From: Ectocarpus siliculosus
Taxonomy: Eukaryota; Sar; Phaeophyceae; Ectocarpales; Ectocarpaceae
Reading direction: 5' to 3'
NCBI GenBank assembly: GCA_000310025.1
Contig: FN649728.1
Span: 6,911,197 to 6,975,196, forward strand
DNA: 64,000 nt
This document shows positions 27,320-48,823 of this stretch, one piece after another. Position numbers and translations under genes: made by a program. Below the pieces are notes generated by a model. It searched no databases. It was given only the letters and a program-made list of their open reading frames with translations, and was not told the DNA's origin. Position 1 is the first letter of the stretch; every line of letters begins with the position of its first letter.

Positions 27320-30300
27320 ATGGGAGGGCTTACAGGCGTATCATGGGCTCTGCTGGTGGTTCATTCGATATGGTCATTTGCGCTTGGTCTTGATATGCAC
27401 AAGTTCTGGAGAATGTGAGTGTAACAGGCAAACGGACGGCTTGAAATGTTGTGTTTGCGAAAAATGAAGATGCACAGGGGGGGGTTGCACGTCTGGCAAG
27501 CGAATAACTGACACCGGCTTGCCACTGCTGAGCTAGCGACAATTTTGCACGAGGGTTTTTACCCGCAAACGTTTGCGGTTGTCTTTGCGGTTGCAGGCGG
27601 AAAAAAATGAGGATATTTGCACGTTGGCCAGCGCTAGCTCTCCTCAGCGGCTGCGCGGGTGGCGTAGTTCAAGCCTGCATCGTGCTGCAGGAGGTCTTGG
27701 CTCAGGTGACAACATCCTGCAATGTGCCCCTGGCTTTTTTTTTATCTGTGTGTCGTGGGTTGCGTCAGGGTTCTGCTATCGGTAACTTGACGTCGATGGC
27801 GGATCTGGGTACATTCAGAACGGAGAAGCAGGAACACCCCAGGCTTCAGATAGGATTCTTGCGCCAAAGAGGGTTCGAACCTTGGACGTACCCCGAGTCG
27901 ACTATTGAAAAGAGGAAATGAGATGAAGCCATATACCCGAATCCATGCCAACGTGGTTGGTCGTGAATGGTTGATGTCATAGACAGGTGACAAAGAAATC
28001 GTTTGGGCGAGACCGCGCAAGACGAACGGATTCGCATGAACTTAATGTGTGCCAGAAGCGCACCATACACGACAACACGTGCGAGTCTCTGCGGTCCAAC
28101 AGTAGGAATTTCGGTCATGGTGCCGTCTTGAAATCTCCGGCTGGTAGTACGAGAGCGAAGAACAAAAAAAATAGTGGTGCTCTGTGTTTGTACGTTTCGC
28201 CCGGTCCTAAACAAACCGCTGCGTGGGAAACACCAACACAGAATCTGAATATTTCAACGGAATTCTGTAATTTTTGCTAATGTAATTTTTGAAGAATCCA
28301 CGGAGAACCACCACGCCTAATGACGGGAAACGATTTAATCTTTTGGGAGCCTCCCATCATCTTTCTTATGGGATCTTCCTGCGGCGTGGCGGTGGTAGGA
28401 AAGGTAGATGTTTCAGTTCTCGAGTCCTTGGCTAGTTGGGAAAAGGTTTCAGGTCTCAATATGGCGTATCTTCGACAGCTGCTGCGAAATCGACCGAGAA
28501 ACAAGTCCGATTCCATTACAACAAGACGAAACCACACGACCATCCAGAGATCGACGTGCTCCTCAGATTCAAGCCGGCTTCTTCGCCTTCTGTTGACGAT
28601 CGCACCATGCACGCTCTGGGGAAGACTGCACTCGTCTATTGAAAACCTCACACATTGAACGAGGATATCCTGCTCATCCCTGGAGGCATGTGACACTCTA
28701 TCTCAGCGCCCTAGCTTGCTCAAAAAATCATTCGTGCTTCCCAATGACATACTTCAGTATATTTCAGCACTCCGTAGTCGCGGGCATTCATCTTGTCACT
28801 GGGGCCATTGCACGGACGTGCCCTTTTAGAAGTGACCGGGCTAGACGAAGAGGTTGGGTAGACGGCTACAATGTGCAATGCTAACTCTCGAAATCCAAGT
28901 CTCGGACTTGAACAAAGAGCGCTTTGGTCGTGTACGGAGAGCACATTTCTCTGATAAGGGGTTGGGTAATCTTGCTGACATTGCCGCGTGTGCCTCTCTC
29001 TCCCTGTACGCCCCATCGCGCGCTTGGCCCTTTGCTTGCGTGTGGTCCATCTACAGGAGGGCCACGTCTTGCCCTGCGTCGTGGTCCTCTATCTGAACCC
29101 TGTGGTGATCGGACCTTACGCCTTCTCGTATCTGTTGAGAGGTCTCAGGGCGGTCATCATATCTGACAAAGGTTGGGATATCCGACATTGATGTGTCCAA
29201 AACCTCGAGACAATGTTTCGAACGCTAGAGAAAGAAAGGTTCAAACAACTGTCCAAATAACGATGGCAAAATACAACAAAACAAATCACCCTTCGGTGGT
29301 ATTGAATATGTAGTTCGTGACATAGTAGGCTGTTGTAGAAGGAGGAATTTAAAGCTCCGTTTCCGGGCGAACGAGCTTGTTTATCGTTCGGCACTACAGT
29401 CCTTCCAAACCAAGAGAAGAGCAGCACACGAAACCAAAAGGAGTACATGGTGAGGCCCTGAAGTTGATGGCATGTTTCTTCCCAAAAAAATCATCGAAAT
29501 ACGATGGATCCCCATGATTGATCTGTTCTTGTCAGGTTTGTGATAAAAACTGTTCGAAACGTCTGATGCATCAAATTGCCATGAGGAGCGTCTGAAAGGT
29601 TGTCAAGCCATGAACATTATCTCGTGCTTGTTGCCAGTTCCGGAAGCCACATCTCCTCGCACGTTGTTATTTACCCTTCCTACCTCCCGCCCCTACATTA
29701 CGCCTCCTGTGACGATGTTTGCGAATCATAGCGTGGAGAATGAAGTTCATGGCCTTGTTTTCGCGGAACAGCATCGCCATCTTTTATACGTCAATGGTCA
29801 TAATCCTGCTAGGAATCTGCGCCATGCTTCAGAAAATCGCATCCGACGTTTATGGGTGAGATGGATGGGTGCATGGATGAATGGGTGAATGAGCTCGATT
29901 CTACCCGTAGTTACTGCAATAAATGTCCTCCGATACGATATCCGTTGGCGGGATCCAACACCATCCAGAAGCACATTGTTTATCGTGATTTCAAAAGATA
30001 GGCCATCGTCGTGCCGAGAGACCACCAGCTTTCAGTGCTGACGTGCGGCTGCGAAGGGTTTCCCGAGGTGGGAGTGCCGGACTGCGCACAGTAGTACGCA
30101 AGGTGTAAGTCGTAGACGCCTGTGTCCCCCTAACACCCACCGCCGGTCGACAGGGTAAACCCCACCGAGGTGTGTGTTTTTCTTGGAGACTGGTGGTTCT
30201 GGTGCCCTTCATGCTTCCTGATGATACTGGCGGGCTCGAAGCTCTTCATAGAGCTTTCACGTCTGAACGACAGCATCAACATGGCCAAGGAAATTTCCAC

Positions 30301-33300
30301 GACAGCTGGGGCGTGGCTTATTTTAGCTGGTGAGTGCCTGTACCCCGCCACATGCCACGTGAACGATAGAGCAGCGTATCTTGGCACCAAATCCCACGAT
30401 GGGTGTCATATCTGAGGTGTAAGTGCTGTATGTGGAGAAGATTCGCGGCGAGGTGATTTCAAAGCGCTACTACAGGAAGGCGGCGGTTTATTGAGTATCT
30501 TGTGGGATAATCTCTCCATGTACTCCTATTTTAAGTCGCTTCTCGCCTCCTTGCATTGATTGAACCTGTCCCGTTCAGCCTAGCTCTTCTCTCCCGCCGT
30601 TTCCCACCACTCTACAACCCCCCCCGCCGCCCGGTTTCCGAGCACTATCGCCCTCCGTACTGCGAAGGTACATCGGTTCGCCCGAAAACGCATACAGATT
30701 GGCGTGGGAAAATATGGTGAAGCCACCTAGAGGGGTGTACGTCCCCAGTTGCAGTCCGGTATAGCACGTTCAAGCTATTCATGACCACCTCTTTCTCTCC
30801 ACGCACAGGAAGTCTTGCACCCTTCAGTACCATCGAAATGTCTGCCTTGCCTACGATCGAAGGCTTGTACGCTAAACTCTCCCTGTCCCCTTCCGCTTGA
30901 AACACACCCGTTGAACGTCTACCGCAGTGCCGTACTTTTCCGTGATCGTGCTCAACGCGTTCAACATCCTGGAAATGCCAAGACAGCATTCTTTTCTCCT
31001 GTGGCTATGTATCGCGCTGACACTCGCCTGCACGTAAGTTGCACCTTGCGTTTCCTCCATGTGCTGACGAGTTCTGGTTCCTCGTAGTTCTCGCGGAACT
31101 CTTAACACTTGTTTCGGCCTTACTTACCCCCGCACTTCTGTGACAAACGTTCTTTAGTGGCCCTCATCCTTTTCACAAAGCCCGTTTTCCGATCCATCTA
31201 CCGGGAAAAATTGGTCGACATTGTCTTTTTTGGGTTTGCCTTGTCAATACGACTTGTGCTTGTGGCAGTTGGCGGCACCAAAGCAGATCCGAGTTGCGAT
31301 AGTTCAAGAGACACCCAATGTCGGAAATAAAACACATGCGCTTGTTCTTCCACAGCCGTTGCCCTGTTCATGACACCCCCACGCGGCGTGCATCGCTATT
31401 TCGAAAAGAAAGGCGGATACCTCGTCGTGTGTCTCTCGACGCCAGTTGAATTCCTACCGCGTACAACGAGCTGCTGCTCATGACTTGAAGGCAAGGTTTT
31501 GCACTTCCGGCCTTGTCCCAAGCGACGGGAACAAGCGTTAAACGACATTTCGGGGGAGAGAAATACGTGTACTCCGCACCACGACCCTCTCAGAGCTGTC
31601 TCTCTAGGTGCTGGCATTTGAAGCGTTAAAGAGTGAGAGTCCTCACTAACATGTAACCCATCATCGAATGACTGGGACTTCAAAGAATCACAGTTTTTCC
31701 ACAACATTAAAACGTTTCGATAAAAATATCTCAGAATCGCCGAACACCTCGCGGGCACACCCGCAGGTTCATGATCGAGCCGCGGCGACATCACGGCGAG
31801 GTATCGTGTTGGAAGAGGAAGAAGAAGCAAAAGGTCTTCATTGACGATGCCAAGGTCGCCGCTTGGATGGAGAGCTGGCACAACTCAGCGGTAACGGGAT
31901 GTGGCTCTTGCCCTTAGACTAGGCCTGGAACATGGCCGCCCAGCTGCACCCAATTCCTCGAACATCGAGGGGTGTTGGCTTATTCGTAGTATACCCACAC
32001 GAACGTTCGCAACACCACTATTCGGACACTCTTCCGTCGCCGCCACCCTGACACTAAGAGACCTTGGGTGAACAGACGGAGCAGCATCCCGTGTACGTGA
32101 CACTGCTTGCATTCGCTGCATCTAAGTACAGGGAAACCCTCTCAAGACTCGCCGAAGATGTGCAATTAGAAAGAGTATTCATACATTCGCATACACAGAT
32201 CGAGACAAAGATCATAGTATTGTGAGCAATCCCAACAACCGGATTCAGTGGACTGGCCCAAAATCACCTGTGAGACTGCCGAAAAGCACGTTCCTGCCGA
32301 ACGTCCAAAACCTACCCTTTCAATGCGCAAGTTGAGGTATCTCGGCAGTTCGCCCCACGAGTTGTAGCCTGACCCCTTTGGCTTGCGTTCATTGGCTGGC
32401 AGGCAATCATGAGCCATCCGATTCTGGACCGAGCTTTCGAGAAGCACGTCCAGGACTACCTGTGCTTAGAGTCCTATGACTTCGTCAAGGAGGTCAGTGC
32501 ATGCAGACCTGAGCGTGATAATGAGCCTGTTTAGGAACGTTGTTCGAGAGTAAGCCCATCTAGACTAACCGATGGATGGCTAGTATTCCTTATAGCACAT
32601 ATTTTCGGAAAACTCACGCGGAGTCGTTTCTGCAACGGCACACGTACGTCTGTGATACCCAGATGATTTTGTTCCTCCTATGATTATGCTCCCAGCGTGC
32701 GACGTTGAAAACGTACTACAGACGCTCTTGCAAACATGTGCCACTAGTCCTGTTAACATGAAATTTTGGTATGGAAGACGGAATAAACTGTGCCAAGGTA
32801 TATTGTGTACGGAAGAATTCGGAACATCTCCCAGATCTACCTGTGTATTTGGGTTCTTATTGTACAGCCCTGGAAGGGGATTGGTGCGGGTGTCTCGTTT
32901 CGGTTTTCTGGGGTCCCACAAAAAGAAAGGTCTCACTGAGTTCTTATTCTGCTCTCTCGCTGCTCCTGCAGCAAGAGCTTGATGGACGCATGTCCACTAG
33001 GCCCAAGGGCCACGTGATGAGGATGCACAGTGTGTAACACGCAGCCGCTTCGGCGGGCAGCAGCTAAATAACTACGTACATCGAACTTCGGTCCATAGCT
33101 AGCAAACATGTCGTAGCTTTGCCACGTAAAAGTATAGCATAGCATGGGGTGTTTTCTGAATGGTAGTGCGTACCATTGGGAGACTCAATCGTCCGAGACT
33201 GCTGCTGTACAACAGTTTCGTCCCGTCTGGTAGTATCCGGAGGGAGATTTGTGTTTTAGTAGGAGAGACACGTTCGGAAACCACGGGGGTTTTGCGCCGT

Positions 33301-34483
33301 GCGGAACGTGTGGTACGGGGGAAGTCTCCCTCTGCAGGCTCAACAGAATATATTAATCAAGGCAGTTCGAACGAAAGACAATAAAGTGCTGCTCCACAAG
33401 TATTGTGTGCTGATACATCAACTATAGTTGATACGGTTTACCATTATATAGACCAACCTGCCAACGGCCATTTTTGTCACAGGTGACACAGTACGTCACC
33501 GACGCAGACAAACAATCCGTTGAACAACTTTTCGTTCAATTCCGAAGGATCGTGGATGTGTACATCTTGGCGGGGTCGGAGCTGGAAATCAACATCGAAA
33601 CCGCGATGCGAAAAAAAGTGCTCGAGGTGTGTAACATGCGGTCACACGTTCAGTCCTTGGCCCCAGCAAATGTTGCCGCGGTTCGGGTGGGAAAGTAAAA
33701 CCTACGCACAACATACATCGTCAAGGAGATTCGTTGAGAATGGACGCCTGAATGTAGGGGATAAATCACTTTGAAACGTTGACCAGGTGCACTTGGTAAC
33801 GACATCTACCTACTTGGAGCCATGACGGAAAAGGTTGGGAAGGCGTTGTTTCATATGGTTGCAACCCCAACAACAAGAGAAATCATCTATTGAGCACAAG
33901 AAAAGGCTTTGGTTTTGAGAGCAGGATACGAAACGGCGACGATACGTCTGCTGACCCTCGGCGATATCGTCATGATGCTCAACGGCTCGTTGGAATACTG
34001 ACCAATCCATACCCGTACCCCCGTGCGCTCCGAAGTAGACGGGGAGTAATCAGCATTTACCGTGCGGGATAGAATATTGGCACGGCTTTGAACGCCCCAG
34101 CTCCCTTTCCTCGACACGTCAACATTTGTTTCTGAAAGATTGGGGACAGGGAAGCCTTTTTGAAGGCTGCGACGGAAAGACGACGAGACGTCTTCAACCC
34201 TCCGAAGGCAGAAGTTCTTAAGATTCTTGACGACAACCTCCTTCAGTCCTTCTTGGCAAGCCAGCAATTTCTCGACGCCTCCAAGAATTGGCAAGAAGCG
34301 CTAGCCGAAGGTAACGATGACCCCGTCTGTACATGCTGCATGGCATTTCCGTCGATTTCGCGTATGCCACTTCAACCGATAGTCAGTGTGAGGTTCTTTG
34401 CTTTCCGTTCCGCTGGCTGCTTCAGTAACTTAATCAATTGTGAACTGTGTCCAGGGACGTCCGTGGACGTTTGCAACGGGTGA
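27320..34483 (+). CDS. Seven-transmembrane RGS-domain protein, copy A
   Basis: Exons: 27320-27414, 27597-27705, 29057-29171, 29732-29855, 30154-30329, 30928-31033, 31767-31890, 32403-32492, 33483-33626 and 34139 onward. Phases agree throughout, and all but the first have the same length as in copy B. Hydrophobic segments: GVSWALLVVHSIWSFALGL, ALALLSGCAGGVVQACIVL, VLPCVVVLYLNPVVIG, a fourth with VIILLGICAML, the CPSCFLMILAGSKLF region, one spanning the exon 5/6 join, and SFLLWLCIALTLAC. These give seven membrane spans. The last three exons encode an RGS fold: HPILDRAFEKHVQDYLCLES, LFVQFRRIVDVYILAGSELE with INIETAMRKKVLE, and DVFNPPKAEV..ILDDNLLQSFLASQQF. RGS domains speed GTP hydrolysis by G-alpha; a 7TM-RGS fusion is known from plant RGS1. 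The end is uncertain: reading on gives a TGA at 34481 (475 residues), but GTAACG at 34311 could be a donor to an unseen last exon (418 residues so far). The acceptor-like CGCAG before 27297 leaves room for an upstream untranslated exon. Confidence 0.88.
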
Positions 34484-34626
34484 CCTCATGACATGTAGAT
34501 GTCCGTGGACGTCCGTCGACACGCCCATGGGTTTCCCATGTTTGGTGTTGTTATGTCTTTCTGCTGCTTCTGCTGCTACCGCCTGTGTCTTCGCATAAGT
34601 GGTATTTCTGAGCTCGATCCACTAGT

Positions 34627-35485
34627 AGACTGCTTCTTTCCTACTTGGTACACCTCAAGGTAAAGAACGGGCATGTTCTAAAGCAAGTCGAACAGTGCGC
34701 GGACTTTTCAAGGTCGTATAGATGCCAACGAACAATGACCCGCATGCCGGTGTACACAAAAGCTTCGTGGAAAGCTTTTTAAATCAACACAGTGACAATC
34801 CAGAACTCGGCGAACAACGCCAAACACCGGACGCCTTCTCACAGACGTTGTTTCTTCCCTCTTCGTTACGACAACAGACGCATCCACGTCCAGCGAATCA
34901 CATACATTGGGCACGATAGACAACCGCGATGCGTTCAACGAGATTCCACAAGCTTACACTACCCTTCAAGAAATCTACCACACGGGACATAGCGGCCGGG
35001 GGATCAGCACCAACGATCGAAGACCATCAAAGCCTACAAGCACCAGCATCACGGGAACGACCAAGCGATGGACGTTACTTTCTGGAGACCGTTCGAGGAC
35101 GGGGGTGTTTTCCCCGACGGAGTCTTTCCCCTCCACCGTCGTGCCTGAGAGAAGTGTGCCGTGAAATCCTTAGGAGGATTCTCCTCAGTAGGGTTCTCGA
35201 GCGAAGCACGCAGCAGCACGCGATCTACAAGCCAGTGGGGCTATGCGCGCTACGGTGGTTTCGTTAACGGTATTCAATAGCAACGATGCCCAGGGGGAAA
35301 CGACGGGCTCAATTAAGCCTAGTTGAATGCCAGGGTTGGCGATAGGTTCCATCCAATGAGTGACGTGTTTCATTACATCGTAGAGTACATGTGGCTTCCG
35401 CTGAACCCCTCCCCGATTCTCCCGCTCTCTTAGATTGTAGTCGACCCAGCTCGTCTTGAAGTAGACATGCAATCATTTGGTACGC
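34627..35485. repeat. Dispersed repeat module R3, copy 2
   Basis: It is homologous to 18645-19567 along nearly the whole length (for example GATCAGCACCAACGATCGA and ACTGAGGAG/ATCCTTAGG landmarks, with small indels). It begins immediately downstream of the first 7TM-RGS gene. Only the R3 part is present. Frame-preserving and frame-breaking changes are mixed, as expected for a decaying non-coding or pseudogenised element. Confidence 0.75.
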
Positions 35486-36123
35486 ATATAGACTGCTGGG
35501 TCGCAAAATTCCTCAGGACGTGCAGGTAGTTCGAGATTTGTGGATGGTGGGCTGAGCAGTGGAGAGGTTTGGCTTGCAATTGCACGTGCGTATGCTGGCC
35601 CTGAAAACCTTAGTCCGTCGATGAAAGTGCACCAAGTGGGTTACGGCAAGCGTCTTCATCAGGAGTCATGAGGGCGACTTGATCTGTCCTTGAACAAATA
35701 ATTTCGGAACGCCAATGTGGAGGATGCGATTTGTTCATGCTTACACCGTAGTTCATTCCTCCAGCTGGTGTCAAATAGTCATTGTACAGGCTTGTTCCAA
35801 CGGTGTGTGTCCATTTAGCTGGCCATTAAGGGTCTGAAGACAAGGAATTTCGGTGTTGACTAATTTGAAAACAAACGCAGGAGCACCAGAAAATGCACAA
35901 GAGACACACAAGACCAGTCGGAAGGCATCGCGTAAAACAGAACTCGTTTATTCTCGCATTCTCGCACAGGGCGGCAGTAGAGGCTGCTCAAAACATAAGT
36001 TTCACGCGTCTACCTCCACACGCCTCCTTAGAAATCAAGATAAAATCCACATCATTATAAATTTAAGTCAATAGAGCGAAAACGGAAGGCGCTCAAAAAA
36101 GGTCGGTTTTGAGGGTTAGGTGA

Positions 36124-36592
36124 TAATTCTATTGTCATCAGTACATACAGTAGAGGACATCATGAAGACGCGTTGTGCGTGCTGGCACATTCAGGTTTGC
36201 TACAATTGGAGCTGAAATATCAAGGTCGCCGCAGCCAGCCTTTGAAAATAGTCCGAAATCTGCGCCGGAACCAAGCGGTATCCAACATGTGTCATAGCCG
36301 TGCTCGCCGCCACGAACCCCAATCTCCTGAGCTGCGGGTTAATAGCAGTAGCTGATGCCACTACATAGCTACTGCTGTAAACCCGCAGCTCAGGGGTTTA
36401 CGGTCCGTGGCGGTGTGAGCACGGCGGCTGTGACAAATGTTGGATGCCGCTTGGTTCCGGCGCAGATTTCGGGCTGTTTTCAGCGGCTGCTGCGACCTTC
36501 GATCTTCCACCTCCAGTACATAGCAAACCTGAACGTAACAGCACGCGCGACCCCTCTTGATAGTGTCCTCTACTGATGACAGTAGAATGCAC
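36124..36592. mobile_element. Long inverted-repeat (fold-back) element
   Basis: The left arm (36124 to about 36355) and right arm (about 36360-36592) are imperfect reverse complements over about 230 bases each. Matched blocks are ATTCTA(T/C)TGTCATCAGTA, TCAGGTTTGCTA, CCGAAATCTGCGCCGGAACC and CCTGAGCTGCGGGTT. Only a few unpaired bases lie in the centre. No coding frame of note. It fits a fold-back transposon or MITE with very long terminal repeats, between the two 7TM-RGS genes. Confidence 0.8.
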
Positions 36593-38895
36593 CACCTACA
36601 TAAAACCCTTGCGGGAAGGTTGTTTTCTTTCTTTGCATAGGATAAAGTATTGGAAAAGAGTCAGCGCCAAAACCCCTTGTCCTCAGACACACTCCATACG
36701 TAGACAGGGATACTGTTATTGTGCAGGTTTTCTTTGGTATTGAAGAACAAACAAGCTGTACACTACTGTATTCGTGGCAGCCTGCTGTTCATACAGTTGA
36801 TTTTCGGCCAAAGAATGGCGGCGTAACCTATTCTGGCGTGATCATTTGCCGAACCGTAAAACATTCGACAAGAACCCAAAAATTCAAAAACCGTTCCTAC
36901 ATCCTAGACTATTGTACATCCCCAGGATATCCGAAGGCAGCTGCCTGACGGTATCTACAATGTACATGAGCAGAGATCGAACGTTTTTTACATTGTACAC
37001 GATACAACAGGTCGATTGCTGATTGGTCGAGCGCCGTTCACTAGTTTTTCTATGTTTCCTGAAACCCACCAATCAACGACTTGATCCATCCTTGATGGCT
37101 GGCCTGGGTCCTGTTCGTCGTTCATAGTAAGCCCCTCGGCCGGCCCTCGGTAGTGTGCGGCATAAACACTGGGCGGTACTCAAAGCTTTCACCGTCTTAC
37201 TACAGTACCGCCTTGGAGGGGTTTCTTCGCAAACACCACCCACCACCTTCTGAGCCTGTGGTGTTTGTGCGGTGGCTGCCCTAGGCCTGGCCTTCTTTAT
37301 TTTGGGAGAAGCTGCTGCGTTCTGGAGGAGCCTCGAAAGGTAGTCGGTAGGTTCGTTTTGATGGACACATGCACGCTTGAGTGCTTTGCGGTGTTGGGAT
37401 TGTTGCCGACTTTCGAGCCATGACTGATTGTAGTAATCAACATCCTGAAATGTCCAGTCAGTGCCATCATTATGAATAAATACATGTATTGTGCTGTGAC
37501 GTGCGCAGATATCCATGGACACGTCCGTCCATGGGCGTTTCTAACAGACAGCCCGTCTTTGGATTTACCATTGTACGACGGGCCGCGTACTTTGAGCAGC
37601 AACTTGCAATTCTCGGCCGGGTGAAAAGTCACATTATTCGTATGATGTGCGTACGTATGCACGTGGTGTAGTCTAATGTTTTTTTTGTGTGTGTTTTCGT
37701 TCCAGCTATTTATTATGGCGACAGTTCCCCCATTTTTCGTGGTGAGACATGTACTACACTCTTCAGTGTATGTATAGTATGTAGAGTACTACAGCAGTGT
37801 TCAGTGATTTTTTCGTACAACTACAACCATCCAGGGTCACACAGGAGGGGGTAAACACTGGGGCTTTTTTCTTGTTCCTGTTTTATATTTCTTCCGTGCC
37901 CCACCTTCCGCCCGCGGTGCGTGCTGGATTTTATTTTGTATTGCGAGAAGGGTCCAGCCGTCCCTTTTCCTCGTCGACGCTGCTAACGTCGGAGTTTGAT
38001 ACCCACGAGAGCTTTTTCAGCTTTTTCCCGCAGTACACAAATCGTCCACATGTAGCAATTGTATGCAAGAACTTGAGAACAGGGGGAAGGGCTCAACCCG
38101 CCTTCAAGGGGAAAGAACACAGTCGAAGGGAGGAACCCAATGAACGTGGAAGGTGGGAACAGTAATAATAATCGCTGTGCTAAATTTTCAAGTTTCGACC
38201 AACAACATAGTCTACAGCGCAAAGAGAGTCAATCGTGCGGGGCGAGCGCTGTGTGTGGTTTGTCAGGGCAGCAGAACGCGTGGTGGACAAATACTAGGAT
38301 GATTCGGTCACACTGCGAAGTGTACTGATAAGGCTGGGGTATGTCTCAAAATATACCTGAATCAATTGCGGGACCCCCATTCCGCTGTTCCACATGACTA
38401 ATGTGCGATCAGCTAAAGCTGTAAGTCTATTTACCTAGTAGTTAGATCAGCGTCGGACGTGCACTAGCTAGGCTCGGACGCTGTACCGTTGTCTAGCTAT
38501 AATTCTAGATGTCGATACCGTTGTCCTAGGGCATATTAGCGATATTTATCACTCACGCATGAATTAACCCCGAGCTCACCCAATAATGAATGAGCTCTAG
38601 CAAGCCGATATCAAGCTAAGTAAAGGTATTCTACCTTGCTCCATAGCTGTAATGCTGCTGTCTCAGGTTGCTCCCCCGGTGGATCAGGAGGTAGACCGTG
38701 CGCTCACGAGTTAGTTTCGCGGAATCGAGTTCTCAATACCGACGAAAAAAAGGACACAATATGCCCTGGTTTCGCGGTACCCACGAGGCTTTTTGCAATC
38801 ATCCGCGAAGTCGGAAGGCGTTAGCGGCTCTCGAGATAATCCAGAAGCTCTCTCTCACCCGAATCTCGTTTTTTACAGGTGGATCTTTTTGCAGG
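36593..38895. other. Spacer between the two 7TM-RGS genes
   Basis: No gene could be supported. A minus-strand frame at 37073-37522 has no domain signature. Short inverted or direct GTCCGTGGAC/GTCCATGG-type words occur near 37508-37540 and also at 34455-34530. The stretch just before 38896 probably holds the promoter and 5' untranslated part of copy B, but no defined motif is visible. Confidence 0.4.
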
Positions 38896-41800
38896 ATGGC
38901 GGGAGGGCTGGCAGGCATGTCCTGGACTCTCCTGGTAGTCCAGTCCATCTGGTCTTGGGCGCTTGGCCTTGACATGTACAAGTTCTTGGGAATGTGAGTA
39001 TATTTGGTAATCGGGAGAGAGGCTCGCCATAGGCTTGTAAGCTCCCAAGGTTCTGATGCAGACAGGGTGTAGAACTTGGTGATCACCGAAACGATGTGAG
39101 AAGTATTGAGCAACACTGAAATTTGTCCCGTACATAAAACGTTTGCGGTTACAGGCGGAAAAAGCTGAAGATTTTTGCGCGTTGGCCAGCGTTAGCCCTC
39201 CTCAGCGGCTGTGCAGGGCTCATCGTTCAAGTTGTCATCGTCGTGCAGGAAATCATGGCACAGGTACTGTGCATCTTGGCTGATATCAGGTTGTTGCCAT
39301 CAACTTCTTAACTGAAATATTGGATCTCGAGCAAACAAGAATCGGTATTAACGAAGTAGTGCAACGAACGGTAAAATCCAAATGACACTACATATCGTGG
39401 TGTGTTCCCGTCACGAGTGTTTTAACGTTGGCACTGCCGTATGAGGCAACTCTTCGCTAGACTGATCCTTCAAATAAATGAAGAAGCGCCAGCACTTGAC
39501 ACAAATGAATGCATTAGAAGACGCGGGTTAGAAAACAATAGTGGTCGGACAGAATGCAACGGGCAGCATCATCAGTGTTGTATGTACTACAGAAACAGCA
39601 TGAAATTCTAGCCTGCTTGGTTGGTTGGTCTTTGTGGAGCGCATTGTTCAATCCCAATAGAAGCTAAATTCTTGCAGGCATTGCCCATTTGTGTTTGCTT
39701 TCTTTGTACCTTGTCGCGTGCTCGATTGTTTGTGGGCGTGCAATTCCTGCAGGAAGGCCACGTCTTGCCCTGTGTCGTTGTCCTTTACCTGAACCCTGTG
39801 GTGATCGGATTTTACGCGTTGCCGTACCTCTTGAGAGGTTTCAGGGCCGTCGTCCTCTCCGAAAAAGGTTTGAACCTCTGACAACGATGAGTAAGGCTGA
39901 TAGTGCTCACGAAAACAAGGAGGTCGAGACCACATCGATTGACATACGAATGGACCTTCAGCTACACAACGAGTCCCCGCCAATAGTAGAAGGGAAAAAG
40001 TATGCTTCCGTTTCTCGCGGATCGGGCATCCTCCACTAGGTGCGGGCCTACTGCAACGTCCTTGCACCCCTGTTGTCCAACTGACTGTGAGCGTTCGCAG
40101 TCCCACTTGAAGTGTCATATGATCAACGACTGCTCAACTCGACCTCTCAATCGGTTTGAAAAACAGAGTGTACACGATGTCTTGCTTATAACGTAGGACG
40201 GGCGATGGCTGAAGCACTTCGACATATTTTTCAGCTGTACTGATATAACAGATGCCTTGCGGCATGCTCGAAGTGTTTACGCCGTACTACATGAAGACTA
40301 ATCCATGCAGTGGGACGTGAGTTTCCGCCGTCACAGGCTTGGACTACGCCCAACAGTCCGCACTCGAACGCCTCTACTCCTCGCAACACAACTTCCCGAC
40401 ATCCCAGAACCGTTCGAACAAGAGAACAATCAATCAAGCGGCCGTTCTTTCATCGAAACGAAAGTCTGCACCAGAACCAACCCATCAGAGGAGTACCGCA
40501 AACGTCGGGAGGCTTGAGGCGCGAAGAGTAGATTTGAGTAAGCGTCTCCTATCTTCGAGAATGATCCAATAGTCGAGGCCGGTCTGAAAACAAGACCGAT
40601 TCCGATGCTTGTGCTGTCCTTGTCGGGTTCGCGTTCGAAAACGGTTCCACCCAGCCGTGCCGAGGAGAAGCGTTTAAACCATTGGCACGTTATTATACCT
40701 TCACGGCGCAAGCAAACCGTGCTGAAGCCCAGGAATGTCTTTCTCCCTCGTCATGCTCCCTTCCGTCTTGCATCCTTGCAAAGAGTATGTTGCACGCAAT
40801 GGCGTGTCTGCCAGCCTCGAAATTTCTGGAGAATGTCAATCGAAGGAGTTGTTGAGATTCGGGAGACCAGTCTTAGTTGGAGGAAGAATACGTTATCCCC
40901 TGAGAGCCACTTCATCTTGTCTGTGACTCTCCCCAACCCCCTTTGTGTATCGCTTCCCATGTTGACGGTGCTGGGGGACTCACAGCGTGGAGAAAGAAGT
41001 ACATGTTCTTCCTTTCTCGGAACAGCATCACAATTTTGATGGGGACGGTTTTCATAATGTTGCTAGGCATCTGTGCCATGCTTCAGCGCGTCGCACCCCA
41101 GGTTTATGGGTGAGACGGATGGATGAATGGATGGGTTCGATGCTTGACAAATGAGTGATCACAAGATGTGCTCTGATTTGAAGTCCTCGGCCTCGTTGGT
41201 GGTTGCAGCATGCATCGTGTCCACAAAGGTTGTCCACATTACTGTAGTTTCAAAGTACTCGAGTAGAAAATGCTGCGTTTAGCGCCAAGTGATACCAGTA
41301 GCTTGAGTGCCTGCGTGCCACCGCAACACATTTTCCGAGGAGGGGGTGCGGAAATGCACCACCTTTTCGCGTCATATCCAAGCCCTCGGTTTTGCCGGCA
41401 AACGTTCACCGCCGCTCGACAGGGAAAACCCTACCGAGGACTGCATGTATCTTGGAGACTGGTGGTTCTGGTGCCCTTCGTGCTTCCTCATGATACTGTC
41501 GGGGTCGAGGCTATTCGCAGAGATTTTGCGTCTGCACGACAGGATCAGTATGGCCAAGGAAATTTCCACGACTGCTCGCGTGTGGTTTGTTTTTGCTGGT
41601 GAGTGCCTAGACCGTGGTATGCATTATGTATGCAAAGTAGATTTGCCGAGAGAGGTCTATCGAACGAAATAACCGGTTACCTTGGTATCAATGGCTTTCC
41701 CACGACCAGACAAGTTATCCTGGCGACACCATGGATGTAACGGCTTTCAGTTGGTTACTGACAACGCAATCATACTTCAAGGTGATATTCGCAGATTGTG

Positions 41801-44800
41801 TCGTGGGAATCCCTCTCTTCATCATCCTTGGCTTGTGATTTGTATTTTTCTGAAAAAGGGTATCACCATCCGAACGAAGCAACATCTCCGCCATATATAT
41901 CCGGTCGCCCCGGTGGTCTAGTTGGTATCCTCGAAACCTTCTATAATAGAGGTCAGGTCAGGGGTTCGAATCCCGGCATAAGCCAGCTTTTCTTGCAAAG
42001 TGAGTTTTTCTGTCGCTTCCGCTCCTGGTCTAGTGGATAGCGCTAGTTCGTGTGTACACAGAGGGAAGAGAGTGCTGAACTCTTGTCGCATTAAAAATCG
42101 AAGGCAACGCACCACAGGAGGGGAGGGTAGAGAGGGGCTCTTCTGTATGACCACGCGTTGGAGTAAAAGGCACTAGTGCTGTGAGCGCTGATTTGCAGTG
42201 AAAAAAAAAAAAAGTACCCTTGATCATACCTGTTTTATTCAACCTGTGGGTGTACCAATGACCCCTGTCGACGTATACCGGTCGTTGGGCAGAAGACAGA
42301 ACGTGTACAAGGTGAACACAACACCTACAGCGCACCAATGGAAATGAGAAGAACAAGACAGCATACTCGATGAAATTGATGGCCTGACTCCGTGCAATAC
42401 CCACTACAGCTGGAGCTTCGAAGCACCGATAGATGTTGCGTGCTCGAATGAACCTGCCAGCTCCCAAGGATTTGTTCCTCTTTCCACGCACAAGAAAAGT
42501 TAAGTCGTGTGTACAACTCCCTAGGAGGCATCCTCTCCGCCAAATGGTCGTTACTCTTCAAAGTTCATGAAAGATATTTACTTTCTCACTGTTCGCTAGC
42601 CCCCGAGGTGCTAACCGCATACGAGTACGATTGGCGAGAGACCAGGTATCGGAGCCGTCAACCACCGATAAAAATTCTTGCCCTGCTTGAAGTCGCCGCA
42701 AGCTTCATTTAGCCTTTGTTCATGCAGGAATTGTCCGACAGCCTTGAGTGTGTCCCAAAACCCAGCCTTTTCTGAAAAAATCAAAGGCTTCCAACTAACC
42801 TCTCCCCCCCCCCCCCCTCCCGCGTGCCTCCCTCCATCGGTTTGAATCACAAACACTTGTCGCAGTGCCCTACCATTCCATCATCGTTCTCAACGCGTTC
42901 GACGTGGTGGACATGCCGAGGCAACTTTCTTTTGTTCTGTGGCTGTGTATAGCCCTGACACAAATATCCACGTGAGTTACAATAAAGTGGGTTCCTGGGA
43001 GTGGAGCTCGAGGCAGATCTTTCTGTGGTCGTTACTTACCCCGGCTTCCAAACTTGGAGATGGCGCGCGACAAGGCGTCTTTATTGGCCGCCATCTCTTT
43101 TACAACATCCACACCTACGATCTATTTATTGAAACTGCGACAGGGAGAGGGTTCGACAGTGTCTACCTGTGTTGGGGCATGAAGTGTTATATCGACCGTG
43201 TCTCGTCTGGCATCTAGAGAATGGATGTTTTCCAGAAAAACCTCAAGGGTAGTTAATTGACGTGTATCTCGTGTCCAGACGAATGAACACGTCCTATGCG
43301 CTCATGCACATAGGATTCGCGAGTATACGTGAACTTGCGTTTTGCGCGGTCCCCCTCAACAGCGCGAAGGCCCCGAAGGAGATCGAACGACAGGATCCAG
43401 TCCCTGGATTCATGGTGATTGTGGATGGATGACAACACCAACTTTTCTCCAGCGTCCTCTAGTTTGGTCCTCCATAACCGCAGCTGATAACCGTATCTGA
43501 CTTCTATTTCTTCATTAGGGTGGGCACCACAGACCCTCAGCAATGCTCTCCCTACGATTGTTTCTGGACCTTTCTCCACTCCCATTGCTCTAAATGTCTG
43601 TCCCTACGGCTTGTAGTCGTTCGGTTGTTTGGACGGTAGACGGATCGAAGGATATTTCTCTTTATCATCGGGCCCACCTTTTCTAGACCTTTTTGGAATA
43701 ATCACTTCATCATCCTTGAGGGCCAACCGAAAGAATTTTTGCCGTTCACAACAGACACTTGTTTGGTCAGGTTGGATGAAGTCCACGTGTGACTTGAGTT
43801 GTCTGACAAATGAACTACCCGGTGTTTTTGGGTCGGTGTGGATTTGAGCGCCGGGACCTGAGTCGGCGGTCTACGAAGTCCACCACTAATCTCGAAACCG
43901 GAAGTCAATTATTAGTTTGCTGAACGCTGTGGTTTGCGATTCGCTGCTCTTGGGAGCAAAACTGCTGTTCCCCAGAAATGACTCCACACACTATAAAAGG
44001 AAATCCCAATCACGAATGACCGAGACACCAACATAAGCGACGACTTGCCGAGCGTGTCTCGTAAACATCCACAGATTCATGATAGAGCCGCGGCGAAAGC
44101 ACGGCGAGTTGTCCTGTTGCAAACGTCTGAAGAAGACTAGGATCTGTGTTGATGATGCCAGTACCAACGCTTGGAGAGAGACCTGGCACGACTCGAAGGT
44201 AACGGGATAAACGTGACAAAGAAGGATTGCCGAGCTACATTCAGGAAGAGATGGGTCATGGTTTAGGAGACATGTTCCGCGAGAGAGTCCGAAACGCGCT
44301 ATGGTTGCATTACTCCCCTCGTCGCTAGGAAAGAAGTTGGATGCATGGAATCAACAATACCTCTTGTGCGGCACCTCTCCCATACGCGGTTTCGTCAGTT
44401 TTGGTGAAGATATCCAAGATTCACAACTATCGTAGGGAAGGCAGATCAAGATATGAATAATGCAGTGAAGAGCCCAATCACCCTATCCGGATTCAGCATG
44501 GACCGAGCACAAAACTACTCGAAAAAGCATGTGCTAGCTGATAGCCAAAATCTAACATCGTAAGTACGCTTGCCGTTCTATTTGGGAACGACTTGGAACC
44601 TGACACTTTCGGTATGCATCCATCGCCTGGTAGGTCATAATGAGCAACCCGATTCTGGACCAAGCGTTCGAGAAGCACGTCCAGGACTACCTGTGCTCAG
44701 AGTCCTATGACTTCGTCAAGGAGGTCGGTGCAACCAAGCCACGATTGTACGAACTACAGTAGCGTGTTTAGAGACGGACGTTGTTCGGAGATCAAGTCAT

Positions 44801-46597
44801 TCCGGCGCGGTGGATATTTTTCATGCTTTGTTGCAAACATTTTGCGGAAGCCACCTTTCGAGTCATTGCTGTAAGAAATACACCGATGAACCCATTCCTG
44901 TCACACTCTTGGACATGACAACAGTTTTCCAAAACAAAATGATTCGTCCTGTCCGCTTCATTGAGGTTACGTTTTACCAACGCGAGTGAGTGTCCATTGC
45001 TGTCATGTTATGGTCTTTGCTGCAACACAATAATATTACGTTTTTGTCTCGAATTGAGTCGTTATTTTCTGTTTCTAGATCACACGTTGGGGAGAGAGAA
45101 ACACACACACCGTTTCATTGGCTGCAAGGCACTGCGCATAAATCTTACGAAACCCAAATATTTCCAGCCGGAGGCTGCTACAATACTGCAAACAAACGCA
45201 GAGTCCCGAAACTAACCAAGTCCCCAAGGTACACCGTTCGACTACTGTACACCCACCAACTAGAAACCGAATAGTCCCAAACTTGTGTTTCCCCACCGTC
45301 AACAAAAAAGGGATTGGAGGGCTGAAATTGCTAGGCTGTCGCTACAGTAGTCTGCTGCCACGTACTCTACGTAGGGCGGCCACGCTGCTGCTGTCCTTCC
45401 GCCTCTTCACTTGCTCCTCAGCTTCCGTTCTTCCTCTAACACGACTTGCTACAGATGCAACGAGTCCTCCACGGAATGACAGCAATGATACGGAGGATAT
45501 TTTCCTTTGGTGATCCCAGGTTTCCAAAAGTTATGGAGGCATACTTACTTCCGGGTCGCAAAAAATGTCAGGTTCTTCAACTCCTTCTCTCCTTCTGTTC
45601 GACGAAGAAAATAATCTTTCATTGCCACAGAAGTGCTGATTCATGCTTTTATATTTTGTACGTAAGACACAATACCACCGCGACTGATGCCACAGGTGGA
45701 GCGATACGTTACACACGCAGAGAATGAATCAGCTGCAGAACTGTTCGTCCACTTCCGAAGAATCGTCGACAAGTACATTGTCTCGGGGTCGGAGCTGGAA
45801 CTGAACATCGAGAACGCCATGCGAAATAAAGTGCTCGAGGTTTGTGATGACGTTCGCACTTTGAGCCTCCCTCTCTCCGAAGTTTAGCGACTTCCACTGG
45901 TCTGTAGAACGAAACTCCATGTGCCTAGGAGTACGTAAGAATATGGGGGTCGAGCGGGAGTTGACGCTGATGTGCCTCAGGAATCGTCAACTCGAAGACG
46001 CCATAAGTCAAGTTGGATCGTTGTGTAGAGGCTGGTATGGCCTACGCCAATCTTGTTCCCGCTTCCCCGACGAGAAAGGCGCATAGTGTAGAAGGAAAGC
46101 TTCGGTTCCGGGTGTGGGGTATGAGATGGCAAAGGGGCATCTGCAAGCTCCCGCAGAGATTACCATGATGCTCAAAGAAAGGCGAACTCGTCTGATTTTG
46201 TTCTGATTCATATCCGTTGCCCCGCTGGTTTCCGTTCCGGCACACACGGCTGTGCGTCAACAATCTTACGTGTGGGTCTTGTCGTATGGGACGTACATGC
46301 AGACCCTCCTCGAACGCCCCGAAGTTGCCACGGATTTGACCGTCTCACTTCCTGTCCCCCGATGCCAACCCTTGCTTCTGAAAGATCGGGGAAAGGATGA
46401 TATTTGTGGAGGCTGGGATGGAACGGCAGAGAGGTATCTTCAACCCTCCGAAGGAAGAAGCGCACAAGATTCTCGATGACAATCTCCTCCAGTCGTTTTT
46501 GACCAGCCGGAATTTTCTCGACGCCTGCCTACGTTGGCAGGAAGTGCAAGCCGCAGGTAACGATGACTATATTATGATATCTCTTTGCTGCACCTAA
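38896..46597 (+). CDS. Seven-transmembrane RGS-domain protein, copy B
   Basis: Exons: 38896-38993, 39155-39263, 39753-39867, 40986-41109, 41423-41598, 42866-42971, 44075-44198, 44634-44723, 45696-45839 and 46385 onward. Splice sites and phases match copy A in every case. Membrane segments parallel copy A (MSWTLLVVQSIWSWALGL, VLPCVVVLYLNPVVIGFYAL, CPSCFLMILSGSRLF, SFVLWLCIALTQIST). The RGS part reads NPILDQAFEKHVQDYLCSES, LFVHFRRIVDKYIVSGSELE with LNIENAMRNKVLE, and GIFNPPKEEA..ILDDNLLQSFLTSRNF. The RGS exon at 45696 differs from copy A at 16 of 48 residues, while the exon at 44634 differs at 4 of 30. Start chosen at the ATG aligned with copy A (MAGGLAGMSW against MGGLTGVSW). Reading past 46556 gives a TAA at 46595 (432 residues); a GTAACG donor at 46557 could instead lead to an unseen exon. 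It is probably a plasma-membrane or endomembrane sensor acting on G-alpha, inferred from domain order only. Confidence 0.88.
39887..40039 (+). other. Coding-like open stretch inside intron 3 of 7TM-RGS copy B
   Basis: An ATG at 39887 opens a frame (MSKADSAHENKEVETTSIDI, then LHNESPPIVEGKKYASVSRG) ending at TAG 40037-40039. It starts 20 bases after the third exon and is in a different frame from it. A second coding-like stretch, preceded by a good acceptor (GTCACAG), lies at about 40337-40575 (LDYAQQSALERLYSSQHNF). Copy A has no equivalent. They may be alternative exons or remnants of another gene; no family is recognised. Confidence 0.25.
41901..42213 (+). mobile_element. tRNA-derived SINE, copy 2, in intron 5 of 7TM-RGS copy B
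   Basis: It has the same head as copy 1 (A box TGGTCTAGTTGG, B box GGTTCGAATCC near 41963), the same body (for example GATAGCGCTAGTTCGTGTGT and GAGTGCTGAACTCTT) and a pure A tail. The head here is about 17 bases longer than in copy 1 between the boxes and looks more like a complete tRNA, with a CCTTCTATAATAGAGG stem-loop. It is in the sense orientation relative to the host gene. Confidence 0.88.
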
Positions 46598-48823
46598 TAG
46601 TCTGGAGGATATCTGTCCCTTGATTGCAGAGTGTGGATGCATGCAACGGTTTACTTTGGCGATCTGCATCGTAGCGCGCTTAGGATTTTCTGGGTCCGTG
46701 TTTCATTTCCGGTGTACCCTTTTCGAGGTAGTTGGCCTGTCACCACTGAAAGGGTCTGCGTCAATTGGACCGTATGGATGTTTTGACGGTACGGAGCAAT
46801 ACGGAACCTGTCGACCGAAGTCGTGTTGTCGAACATGTTCATTTGCCATGAACGTGGCAGCCGGCGTTAGCGGACGTGCCCTCCGCCGACAGCCATACCG
46901 TTGCCACCGTTTTGAGCCCAACCCGCAGAGTTCCGTGATCCGGTGTCCACGATCAACTAGTTTCATATATGCTGCAGACCGAGACAACTCATTCCAGAAC
47001 AACCTAAGCGAACACGGTTTTCTAATTTTGTTACTTCATTCAAATGTCTTCTCGCCCCTCTTCGTGACGAGGATAGCGGCATCCGCGCCCGACACGATAA
47101 GCCTACTTGGCCGGAATAGCCACCAGGGTTCGTTTGGCGGGCTTTCACGTTCGTTCGCTCGTGTACACGGCGTAATGAGTAGGGAGGTTGGCCGCTCGAG
47201 GAAAAGCAGCATCGGGCGAAGACCAACAGAAAAGGGGGGGTCTACCATTCGGGAAGAGATTACGAGAGTTGGGCCGCGTATGGATGAGCACGCGACGCAC
47301 TCTTTGTGTCCTGTCCATGGGGAGGAGAAGAGAAGTGCCGCCGAGAACAAATAGAGCTCTAGAGAAAAGCTGCAGTATGTTCAACGAGCAGGAGCGCCAA
47401 CCAGACAGCGTTGCAACGAGATCGTCAGGATTCGCCTGTAGCAAATCGATATCTGTCAACGTTGGGATAGGCTGCAATACATTGCTGAGGTACGCTTGGC
47501 GATGGTTCGCGTAACCTTGTACAGCGCATTCTACTGTGGTGGCATGATCATTTATTGGTGTCGTTGCGACCGGACAACGATATCGTCTGGCGCTGTTGCG
47601 CGACTCTCTGTAGTCGGTGCGGAGGTGGTTGTTGTGTTTGAATGTTTTATGTTTGTGTACTAGTTCGAACTGGCAGCGAAGCTTGCCTCAGCCAAGCGTG
47701 CTATTTTAGCGTGTTTATGGAGACGACAGAAAGGAGCTGACAGATGACACCGAGAAACATCTTCAGCCAAAGGGCTAAAACCGCGCGCACATGGAGGCAG
47801 GCTGGGCGAAGTTGTGGGTCCTGAGATATCGCCGCGCCGTGCGTAAACAACGTGTACTCCCTAAATCTAGCACACGCCGTGTCTACTTGCGCTTGCCTTC
47901 AAGTGCACTGGTCGCTCGTAAGGCTAGTCAAAAGACAATCCGTTGTGAAGTTGCACCAATTAATTGTCGATTGGCCTTTTGGTCAAAAGCTACCACAAGT
48001 TTGTCGATGGATACCGCATCAAACACACTTGCTAGCCGGAATCATGTTTTCGGCGGGGGCAGACAGCCGGCTGCATAGTTCTTCCGTTCAGACGCAGCAA
48101 GCAGCCCACGCCGCCGTTCGATCATGTCGGTACAGATCATTGTGGGAACTCGGCGTTGACAAAATCAAGCTGATGGCCGTTTTCGTCGCACACCGTTGTG
48201 ATGCCCGGATGAAACCCACACTGCAAAAACCTCGTTCATAAGTGGCAGTGGCTCTCGGCAGCAGACAGGAACCAAGAACTCGAGCCTCGCGAAAAGTAAC
48301 AATTTCTTCTGATGCACGTGACGCATATTTTCTCTGTGTATCATTGGGTTCATTAAGTACATTCTTCTCTCGGTGGACAGCCACACGAGCGGACACCTTT
48401 TCTTCTTCGCGTGGAACTGGGCCTATCCCCCCTTAAGTTGAGTTCAACTGAAAAGTTGCGTTTGCAACGCCCAGTGGAAACGAGAGACCACCTAAAAACA
48501 CAACGAAAACCTCTCACTGGACCAGCACGGTTGCCCGAGGCAAGCTGCGATATCAATACATTGTTCTGATGCACGTGACGCATTCTGCTTGTGTCCTCCG
48601 TGCAGCAAACAAGCACTCGGTCCCATTGTTGTTTTGACAGGGACACTACTGCTCGGGAGTTGATATCTCTTCGCCCAGCCGCTTAAACCCACACCATCGT
48701 ATCACCGCCTCGCAGTCGTCCGTGCGGCATCGGTGCCTTGGCACTGCGGTAAAGTACCAAGTAGGCGTTAAGCGATCGTGTGTCAACCGCGTCGTGCGAG
48801 ACAGCCCCAGCGGTCCCCTCACG
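46598..48823. other. Intergenic space between convergent 7TM-RGS copy B and the SET gene
   Basis: Several open frames exist on both strands (plus 46620-47354 and 47852-48241, minus 47145-47477 and 48646-48834). None shows a recognisable domain or phase-matched splice partners. The minus-strand stretch 48646-48834 lies just beyond the SET-gene stop and could be 3' untranslated sequence. Confidence 0.4.

What the first reader, a model, noticed from the sequence alone, without database searches (positions are those of the whole stretch)
27320..46597. Tandem pair of seven-transmembrane RGS proteins in a brown-alga-like genome
Two neighbouring plus-strand genes each join about seven hydrophobic spans to a C-terminal RGS domain. 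Receptor-like 7TM-RGS fusions are best known from land plants (RGS1), where they restrain a self-activating G-alpha. Finding a tandem pair in a probable stramenopile suggests either an old shared architecture or an independent fusion, and local expansion of a G-protein sensing system.
Basis: partly seen in the sequence, partly recalled or inferred. Interest (0 to 1): 0.8.

Follow-up and report, generated by a model that had tools for sequence, protein, structure and literature searches.

The report
Twin seven-span membrane RGS receptor genes
Two neighbouring genes of an alga-like genome each join a seven-span membrane body to a domain that in other organisms switches G proteins off, and they appear to belong to a large family of such genes scattered through the same genome.

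Summary
Two plus-strand genes (27320-34483 and 38896-46597) each have ten exons with GT-AG introns and matching phases. Each codes for exactly seven hydrophobic spans followed by an RGS box above Pfam's cut-off (32.1 and 35.7 bits against 23.9). The proteins are 70% identical with dN/dS near 0.34, so both are probably functional genes.

The pair is not isolated. In the same genome 23 of 36 match clusters (the pair included) have related 7TM exons followed, same strand, by RGS exons. In paralogues the residues ending TM7, the linker and the RGS start share one open exon, which argues for a true fusion.

Best reading: membrane-tethered G-alpha GAPs. Possible partners exist: five G-alpha loci keep the switch-I glycine and catalytic glutamine motif.

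Kinship with plant RGS1 stays open. The 7TM part shows no similarity to AtRGS1 above shuffled controls, and three of 11 loci tested weakly match class C receptors instead. The pair's RGS boxes score AtRGS1 above any solved RGS, but the family profile does not. 7TM-RGS proteins are already reported from plants, Naegleria and Trichomonas, so this is a new member of a known kind.

The parts
27320..27414 (+). copy A exon 1 (start Met, TM1)
   Evidence: hydropathy
27597..27705 (+). copy A exon 2 (basic loop 1, TM2)
   Evidence: 74% identical to B over 42 residues
29057..29171 (+). copy A exon 3 (TM3 with conserved LPC cysteine; R-x-x-R at its end)
29732..29855 (+). copy A exon 4 (TM4)
30154..30329 (+). 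copy A exon 5 (loop cysteine, TM5, loop with invariant D and E)
30928..31033 (+). copy A exon 6 (TM6, TM7)
31767..31890 (+). copy A exon 7 (basic linker after TM7)
32403..32492 (+). copy A exon 8 (start of RGS box, invariant Glu)
33483..33626 (+). copy A exon 9 (RGS box with invariant Asn in ELEINIE)
34139..34483 (+). copy A exon 10 (end of RGS box; frame open to 34483, but a conserved donor-like site follows about 34310)
38896..38993 (+). copy B exon 1
39155..39263 (+). copy B exon 2
39753..39867 (+). copy B exon 3
40986..41109 (+). copy B exon 4
41423..41598 (+). copy B exon 5
42866..42971 (+). copy B exon 6
44075..44198 (+). copy B exon 7
44634..44723 (+). copy B exon 8 (start of RGS box)
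45696..45839 (+). copy B exon 9 (RGS box)
46385..46597 (+). copy B exon 10 (end of RGS box; frame open to 46597, conserved donor-like site after about 46556)

Best explanation
Each gene makes a seven-span membrane protein with its N-terminus outside and a cytosolic RGS box. The RGS box binds activated G-alpha at the membrane and speeds GTP hydrolysis, so the protein holds one or more of the genome's G-alpha subunits off. A signal acting on the 7TM part (ligand, or phosphorylation and internalisation as in plants) would change GAP activity or location and so release G-alpha. The pair arose by tandem duplication of one branch of a large 7TM-RGS family. Shown: architecture, orientation by charge, conserved RGS residues, purifying selection, many related loci, presence of G-alpha genes with the needed residues. 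Inferred: one mRNA, GAP activity, choice of partner, signal sensing.
For: Models and seven spans. RGS above cut-off in A and B and in 10 of 10 further loci tested (8 of 8, 2 of 2; these segments come from models fitted to the family profile). An Asn in an E-[IVL]-N-[IV] motif and a Glu are invariant in 10 of 10 RGS boxes aligned. The Asn aligns with the Asn of human RGS2 and RGS16. 23 of 36 clusters in the genome hold 7TM exons followed by RGS exons. The residues ending TM7, the linker and the RGS start share one open exon in paralogues on C7, C18, C20 and C97 (which residues end TM7 is by alignment to A). Five G-alpha loci: switch-I Gly 5 of 5 (four by motif scan, C19 read by eye), DVGGQR 5 of 5. 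dN/dS about 0.34. Precedent: Naegleria 7TM-RGS boxes act as GAPs on some of that amoeba's own G-alphas (PMC9283941, passages).
Against: No transcript or protein data. In A and B exons 7 and 8 meet in phase 0, so splicing across the 7TM/RGS border is not forced by phase. The place of the Asn in human RGS2's E-E-N is Ser in 10 of 10 boxes. PDB phmmer with full-length A gave one match, EhRGS-RhoGEF at E 0.41; the A+B profile and the single RGS boxes of A and B gave no RGS chain at E up to 10. No G-gamma was found, but that search rang in no control either.
Confidence: 0.7

Rival explanations
1. The RGS box is a scaffold or effector-type RGS that binds G-alpha without GAP activity; the 7TM part only anchors it and senses nothing.
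For: Short N-terminus of about five residues, no ectodomain in A or B. The Asn of RGS2's E-E-N (a contact residue by recall) is Ser in 10 of 10 boxes.
Against: The Asn of the E-x-N motif and the Glu matching AtRGS1 E320 are invariant in 10 of 10. 7TM and RGS evolve at like rates (dN 0.174 and 0.177; linker 0.353), so the 7TM part is constrained too.
Confidence: 0.15
2. The 7TM and RGS exons belong to two separate mRNAs that happen to be neighbours.
For: Introns of about 0.4-1 kb lie between exons 7, 8 and 9, and the exon 7/8 border is phase 0.
Against: Same order and strand in 23 clusters. In paralogues on C7 and C18 (L034, L057) and on C20 and C97 (L042, L058) the residues ending TM7, the linker and the RGS start sit in one open exon.
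Confidence: 0.05
3. The proteins are true GPCRs (exchange factors) that also carry a GAP domain, giving self-limiting receptors.
For: GPCR-like cysteine pair (TM3 start and loop before TM5) in A, B and several paralogues; charged residues at the TM3 end and in loop 3 invariant in 7 of 7. Three of 11 loci tested match Pfam 7tm_3 weakly.
Against: No exchange activity can be read from sequence. A and B match no 7TM family.
Confidence: 0.1

Closest known systems
AtRGS1 and other land-plant 7TM-RGS proteins
   Same: Seven spans, cytosolic C-terminal RGS box, invariant Glu matching E320, Asn in the E-x-N motif (AtRGS1 recalled, 18 of 18 residue numbers from two papers agree). The RGS boxes of A and B score AtRGS1 at 19.6 and 21.8 bits, above any solved RGS chain.
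   Different: 7TM part not similar above shuffled controls. The family profile prefers AtRGS1 no more than human RGS2 (28.7 and 31.4 bits). No long tail after the RGS box in B; A's is doubtful.
Naegleria fowleri 7TM-RGS family (28 members; PMC9283941, passages read)
   Same: Large protist family of 7TM proteins with C-terminal RGS, alongside several G-alphas.
   Different: Several Naegleria members have big ectodomains with EGF and lectin-like parts; A and B have almost none. Sequences were not compared (none held here).
GPR158 with RGS7 (class C receptor without Venus flytrap that recruits an RGS; PMC8611064, passages read)
   Same: A 7TM used to place an RGS at the membrane; TM3-to-loop cysteine pair; basic residue at the TM3 end and acid in loop 3.
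   Different: In GPR158 the RGS is a separate protein; here it is fused. Class C kinship of this 7TM is only a weak signal, and absent in A and B.

Membership tests
7TM-RGS proteins (architecture class) | Seven membrane spans, C-terminus inside | tested here: met
   Seven hydropathy peaks before the RGS box in each; positive-inside pattern. No dedicated TM predictor or structure model was run.
7TM-RGS proteins (architecture class) | RGS domain C-terminal to TM7 | tested here: met
   PF00615 above cut-off in A and B.
7TM-RGS proteins (architecture class) | Both parts in one mRNA | tested here: inconclusive
   In-frame splicing in both copies and single-exon junctions in paralogues, but no transcript data.
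7TM-RGS proteins (architecture class) | GAP activity on the organism's own G-alpha | not testable with these tools
   Conserved residues on both sides are present.
AtRGS1-type (plant) 7TM-RGS | 7TM domain homologous to AtRGS1 | tested here: inconclusive
   hhalign probability 0.4 and 1.0%, within shuffled or reversed controls; pairwise z from -0.9 to 1.3. Lack of signal does not prove difference.
AtRGS1-type (plant) 7TM-RGS | RGS box closer to AtRGS1 than to other RGS | tested here: inconclusive
   For: A and B RGS boxes score AtRGS1 19.6 and 21.8 bits (filters off) and no solved RGS chain at E up to 10 (default filters). Against: the ten-member profile scores AtRGS1 28.7 and human RGS2 31.4 bits. 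One recalled plant sequence only.
AtRGS1-type (plant) 7TM-RGS | Self-activating G-alpha partner | not testable with these tools
   Needs nucleotide exchange rates.
Class C GPCR | Pfam 7tm_3 above cut-off (33.5 bits) | tested here: not met
   A and B: no match. Three of 11 loci tested match below it: C7 22.1 bits, 26.0 with a refined model; C15 22.0; C18 L059 21.8.
Class C GPCR | Large extracellular ligand-binding domain | tested here: not met
   About five residues before TM1 in A and B; upstream exons cannot be excluded.

The most novel reading that the evidence does not exclude
This lineage fused a class-C-like 7TM to an RGS box on its own, without shared ancestry with plant RGS1, and radiated the fusion into some twenty or more genes. 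It would then have a receptor repertoire that acts through GAP control of five or more G-alphas rather than only through exchange factors, with the window pair as one divergent, later doubled branch.
Probability: 0.3. Interest if true: 0.75.

Novelty: new member of a known kind. Interest (0 to 1): 0.55.

Why it matters
If the family works as receptor-like GAPs, a photosynthetic lineage that is probably not a land plant may run much of its G-protein sensing through brakes instead of accelerators. That would make the question of whether 7TM-RGS control arose once or several times testable, because the genome offers both a large family and several G-alphas to pair in a GAP assay. A brown alga (Ectocarpus) is reported to have six G-alphas, all expressed in gametes (PMC3879662, passages), so such genes are also candidates for gamete or environmental sensing. 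That last step is speculation.

Tried and rejected
Rejected: pseudogene pair (dN/dS about 0.34; intact frames and splice sites). Rejected: chance RGS-like exons (scores above Pfam's cut-off). Rejected: pair as the only such genes. Considered: plant-type ancestry; no 7TM signal, mixed RGS signal. Considered: class C ancestry; weak signal in 3 of 11 loci, none in A or B; the 7TM profile A3 found nothing in the PDB, nor did the C7 7TM alone. The genome search with Pfam 7tm_3 listed other loci (C17, C27, C138), none of them in this family. G-gamma search: nothing, and no control rang. Literature: the listings of searches and the passages I opened showed no 7TM-RGS report for brown algae; one search is weak, as its listing was swamped by the term brown alga. 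A GRK (kinase inside an RGS) is reported for Ectocarpus (PMC3307776, passages). Two papers I wanted (by recall, Bradford 2013 and de Mendoza 2014 on G-protein evolution) are not held, so prior mention there cannot be excluded.

Limits of the tally: 144 rows typed (23 of 30 rows; 51 of 51; 36 of 36; 34 of 34); the seven rows left out have E 0.0195 to 0.465. Clusters were made with an 11-kb gap rule, so the count is approximate: C20:1172-1182 kb probably merges two genes, some long clusters on C102 and C18 may too, and C15:5.10 Mb and C7:1.78 Mb rest on weak matches. Paralogue models other than L057, L059 and L034 are rough; short exons in them are uncertain. Besides the five G-alpha loci, one search shows two weak single matches (C11, C2) that I did not count.

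They showed that A and B singly score AtRGS1 above solved RGS chains, which speaks against my first wording; I changed that membership row to inconclusive and lowered the novel case from 0.35 to 0.3.
Full report
Gene models. I listed open frames on both strands around the region, compared the plus-strand frames of the two halves, and spliced the matching exons at GT-AG sites. Copy A has exons 27320-27414, 27597-27705, 29057-29171, 29732-29855, 30154-30329, 30928-31033, 31767-31890, 32403-32492, 33483-33626 and 34139-34483. Copy B has 38896-38993, 39155-39263, 39753-39867, 40986-41109, 41423-41598, 42866-42971, 44075-44198, 44634-44723, 45696-45839 and 46385-46597. Exons 2-9 have equal lengths and phases in both. 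A script for protein-to-genome alignment with introns gave the same inner borders for copy A (its profile contained A, so this is a check of consistency, not a blind test).

Proteins. Both have seven hydropathy peaks before the RGS box, about five residues before TM1, and basic loops on the inner side. The RGS box passes Pfam's cut-off in both. The copies are 70% identical. NG86 gives dN 0.19 and dS 0.56; by part, dN is 0.174 in the 7TM, 0.353 in the linker and 0.177 in the RGS. In blastn only exon stretches align between copies. No third close copy was found in the window or the genome.

A genome-wide family. Searches of the own genome (189 Mb, 492 contigs) with copy A, with a paralogue model from C20, with the 7TM of a C7 paralogue and with its RGS gave many exon matches. 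Grouped by position and strand (144 rows), they form 36 clusters: 23 have 7TM matches followed by RGS matches on the same strand, 7 have 7TM only, 6 have RGS only. The 23 include the two window genes and lie on ten contigs. The count is approximate in both directions (see limits). If the two kinds of match were placed at random, I estimate well under one such cluster (about 30 7TM loci x 11 kb over both strands of 189 Mb, per RGS locus; my arithmetic, not a call). Ten further RGS boxes were tested against Pfam and all 10 passed (8 of 8, 2 of 2). Models L034 (C7) and L057 (C18) show seven exons, with the residues ending TM7, the linker and the RGS start in one open exon. The C20 and C97 paralogues show the same in their own exon layout. 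Only the very end of TM7, placed by alignment to A, lies in that exon; still, this is the strongest evidence here that the fusion is real. The window's 7TM is homologous to the C7 7TM: z 19.1 against 300 local shuffles, none reaching the score, although identity is only 24%.

Partners. Five G-alpha loci were counted: C3:5.59 Mb, C1:1.91 Mb, C19:2.83 Mb, C479 and C7:1.40 Mb (two more weak single matches not counted). Switch I reads RVRTSGI, RIRTTGI, RIRSSG, RVMTSGV and RTRTTGI in that order (C19 read by eye, where an intron seems to follow). The glycine whose change to serine makes G-alpha RGS-insensitive (stated in PMC9283941, passages) is kept in 5 of 5, and the DVGGQR motif in 5 of 5. Ectocarpus is reported to have six G-alphas (PMC3879662, passages).

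RGS residues. In the ten-sequence alignment 13 columns are invariant, among them a Glu that aligns with AtRGS1 E320 and an Asn that aligns with the EIN/EVN Asn of human RGS2 and RGS16. An invariant Cys in L-C-x-E-S aligns with the RGS2 Cys and a nearly invariant Asn with the Asn of RGS2's ENNSY stretch. By recall these two RGS2 residues bear on its choice of G-alpha, so these boxes may have their own preferences. Against a fully canonical box, the Asn of RGS2's E-E-N is Ser in 10 of 10.

Plant link. Its RGS box aligns with copy A (blastp E 2.9e-9 in a one-sequence comparison, 22% identity). Results on closeness are mixed. The RGS boxes of A and B score AtRGS1 19.6 and 21.8 bits (phmmer with filters off), while the same boxes match no RGS chain of the PDB at E up to 10. 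The other eight boxes score AtRGS1 12.1 bits or less (one gave no match), and the ten-member profile scores it 28.7 bits against 31.4 for human RGS2. Its 7TM shows no similarity to this 7TM: pairwise z from -0.9 to 1.3, hhalign score 19.5 against a maximum of 19.6 in 50 local shuffles. So it is built like AtRGS1, but kinship of the whole protein is not shown, and not excluded.

Class C hint. Pfam 7tm_3 matches the C7, C15 and C18 (L059) 7TM models at E 1.3e-4 (9.1e-6, 26.0 bits, with a refined model), 1.5e-4 and 1.7e-4, over nearly the full profile or its first three quarters, below the curated cut-off of 33.5. That is 3 of 11 loci tested; A, B, the C18 model L057 and the models from C2 (two), C10, C20 and C97 did not match. 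In the seven-member alignment the invariant columns include two Arg at the end of TM3 and an Asp and a Glu in loop 3, the region where GPR158 has its K3.50 to loop-3 acid lock (PMC8611064, passages; the correspondence is my inference). A, B, C7 and both C18 members also keep a cysteine pair at the TM3 start and in the loop before TM5. This supports, without proving, a class-C-like origin and an independent fusion.

What is known. 7TM-RGS proteins are described in land plants (PMC3718340, passages), traced to streptophyte algae (PMC12017998, passages), and reported in Naegleria with 28 members and measured GAP activity for some, with Trichomonas named too (PMC9283941, passages). I found no report for brown algae in the open-access library (listings); papers outside it could hold one. 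A diatom study found a complete RGS domain in only one of four diatoms (PMC3727952, passages).

Verdict. It is a new member of a known kind, with a possibly independent origin that deserves a proper tree and a GAP assay.

Noticed in passing
window 26005-26289 and 41901-42191: Two copies (84% identical) of a dispersed repeat carrying a tRNA-like B box GGTTCGAATCC; one sits in intron 5 of copy B. Looks like a tRNA-derived SINE.
   Followed up: partly
window 36148-36575: A near-palindromic stretch of about 430 bp (80% identical to its own reverse complement) between the two genes, perhaps a small inverted-repeat element.
   Followed up: no
window about 34310-34321 and 46556-46567: GGTAACGATGAC conserved in both copies just after the RGS box; reads like a donor site, so a short last exon may be missing from the models.
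   Followed up: partly
L060 (C2:1044200-1048100): A close C18-type relative whose model has an in-frame stop in TM6 and a gap in TM2; perhaps a decaying family member.
   Followed up: no
L036 (C10:1281000-1290900): 7TM-RGS relative with an in-frame stop in TM3 of the model; decay or a model error.
   Followed up: no
G000 C17:1171934-1175802, C27:2818226, C138:590291: Pfam 7tm_3 matches outside the 7TM-RGS loci, so ordinary class C-like receptors may exist beside the family.
   Followed up: no
G000 C92, C232, C488: 18 of the 87 light-harvesting matches lie on these three contigs with one and the same score (127.6 bits), suggesting recent tandem copies or assembly repeats.
   Followed up: no
window 51318-52184 (-) and 46578-47351 (+): Long open frames (289 and 258 aa) near the pair, not identified.
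   Followed up: no
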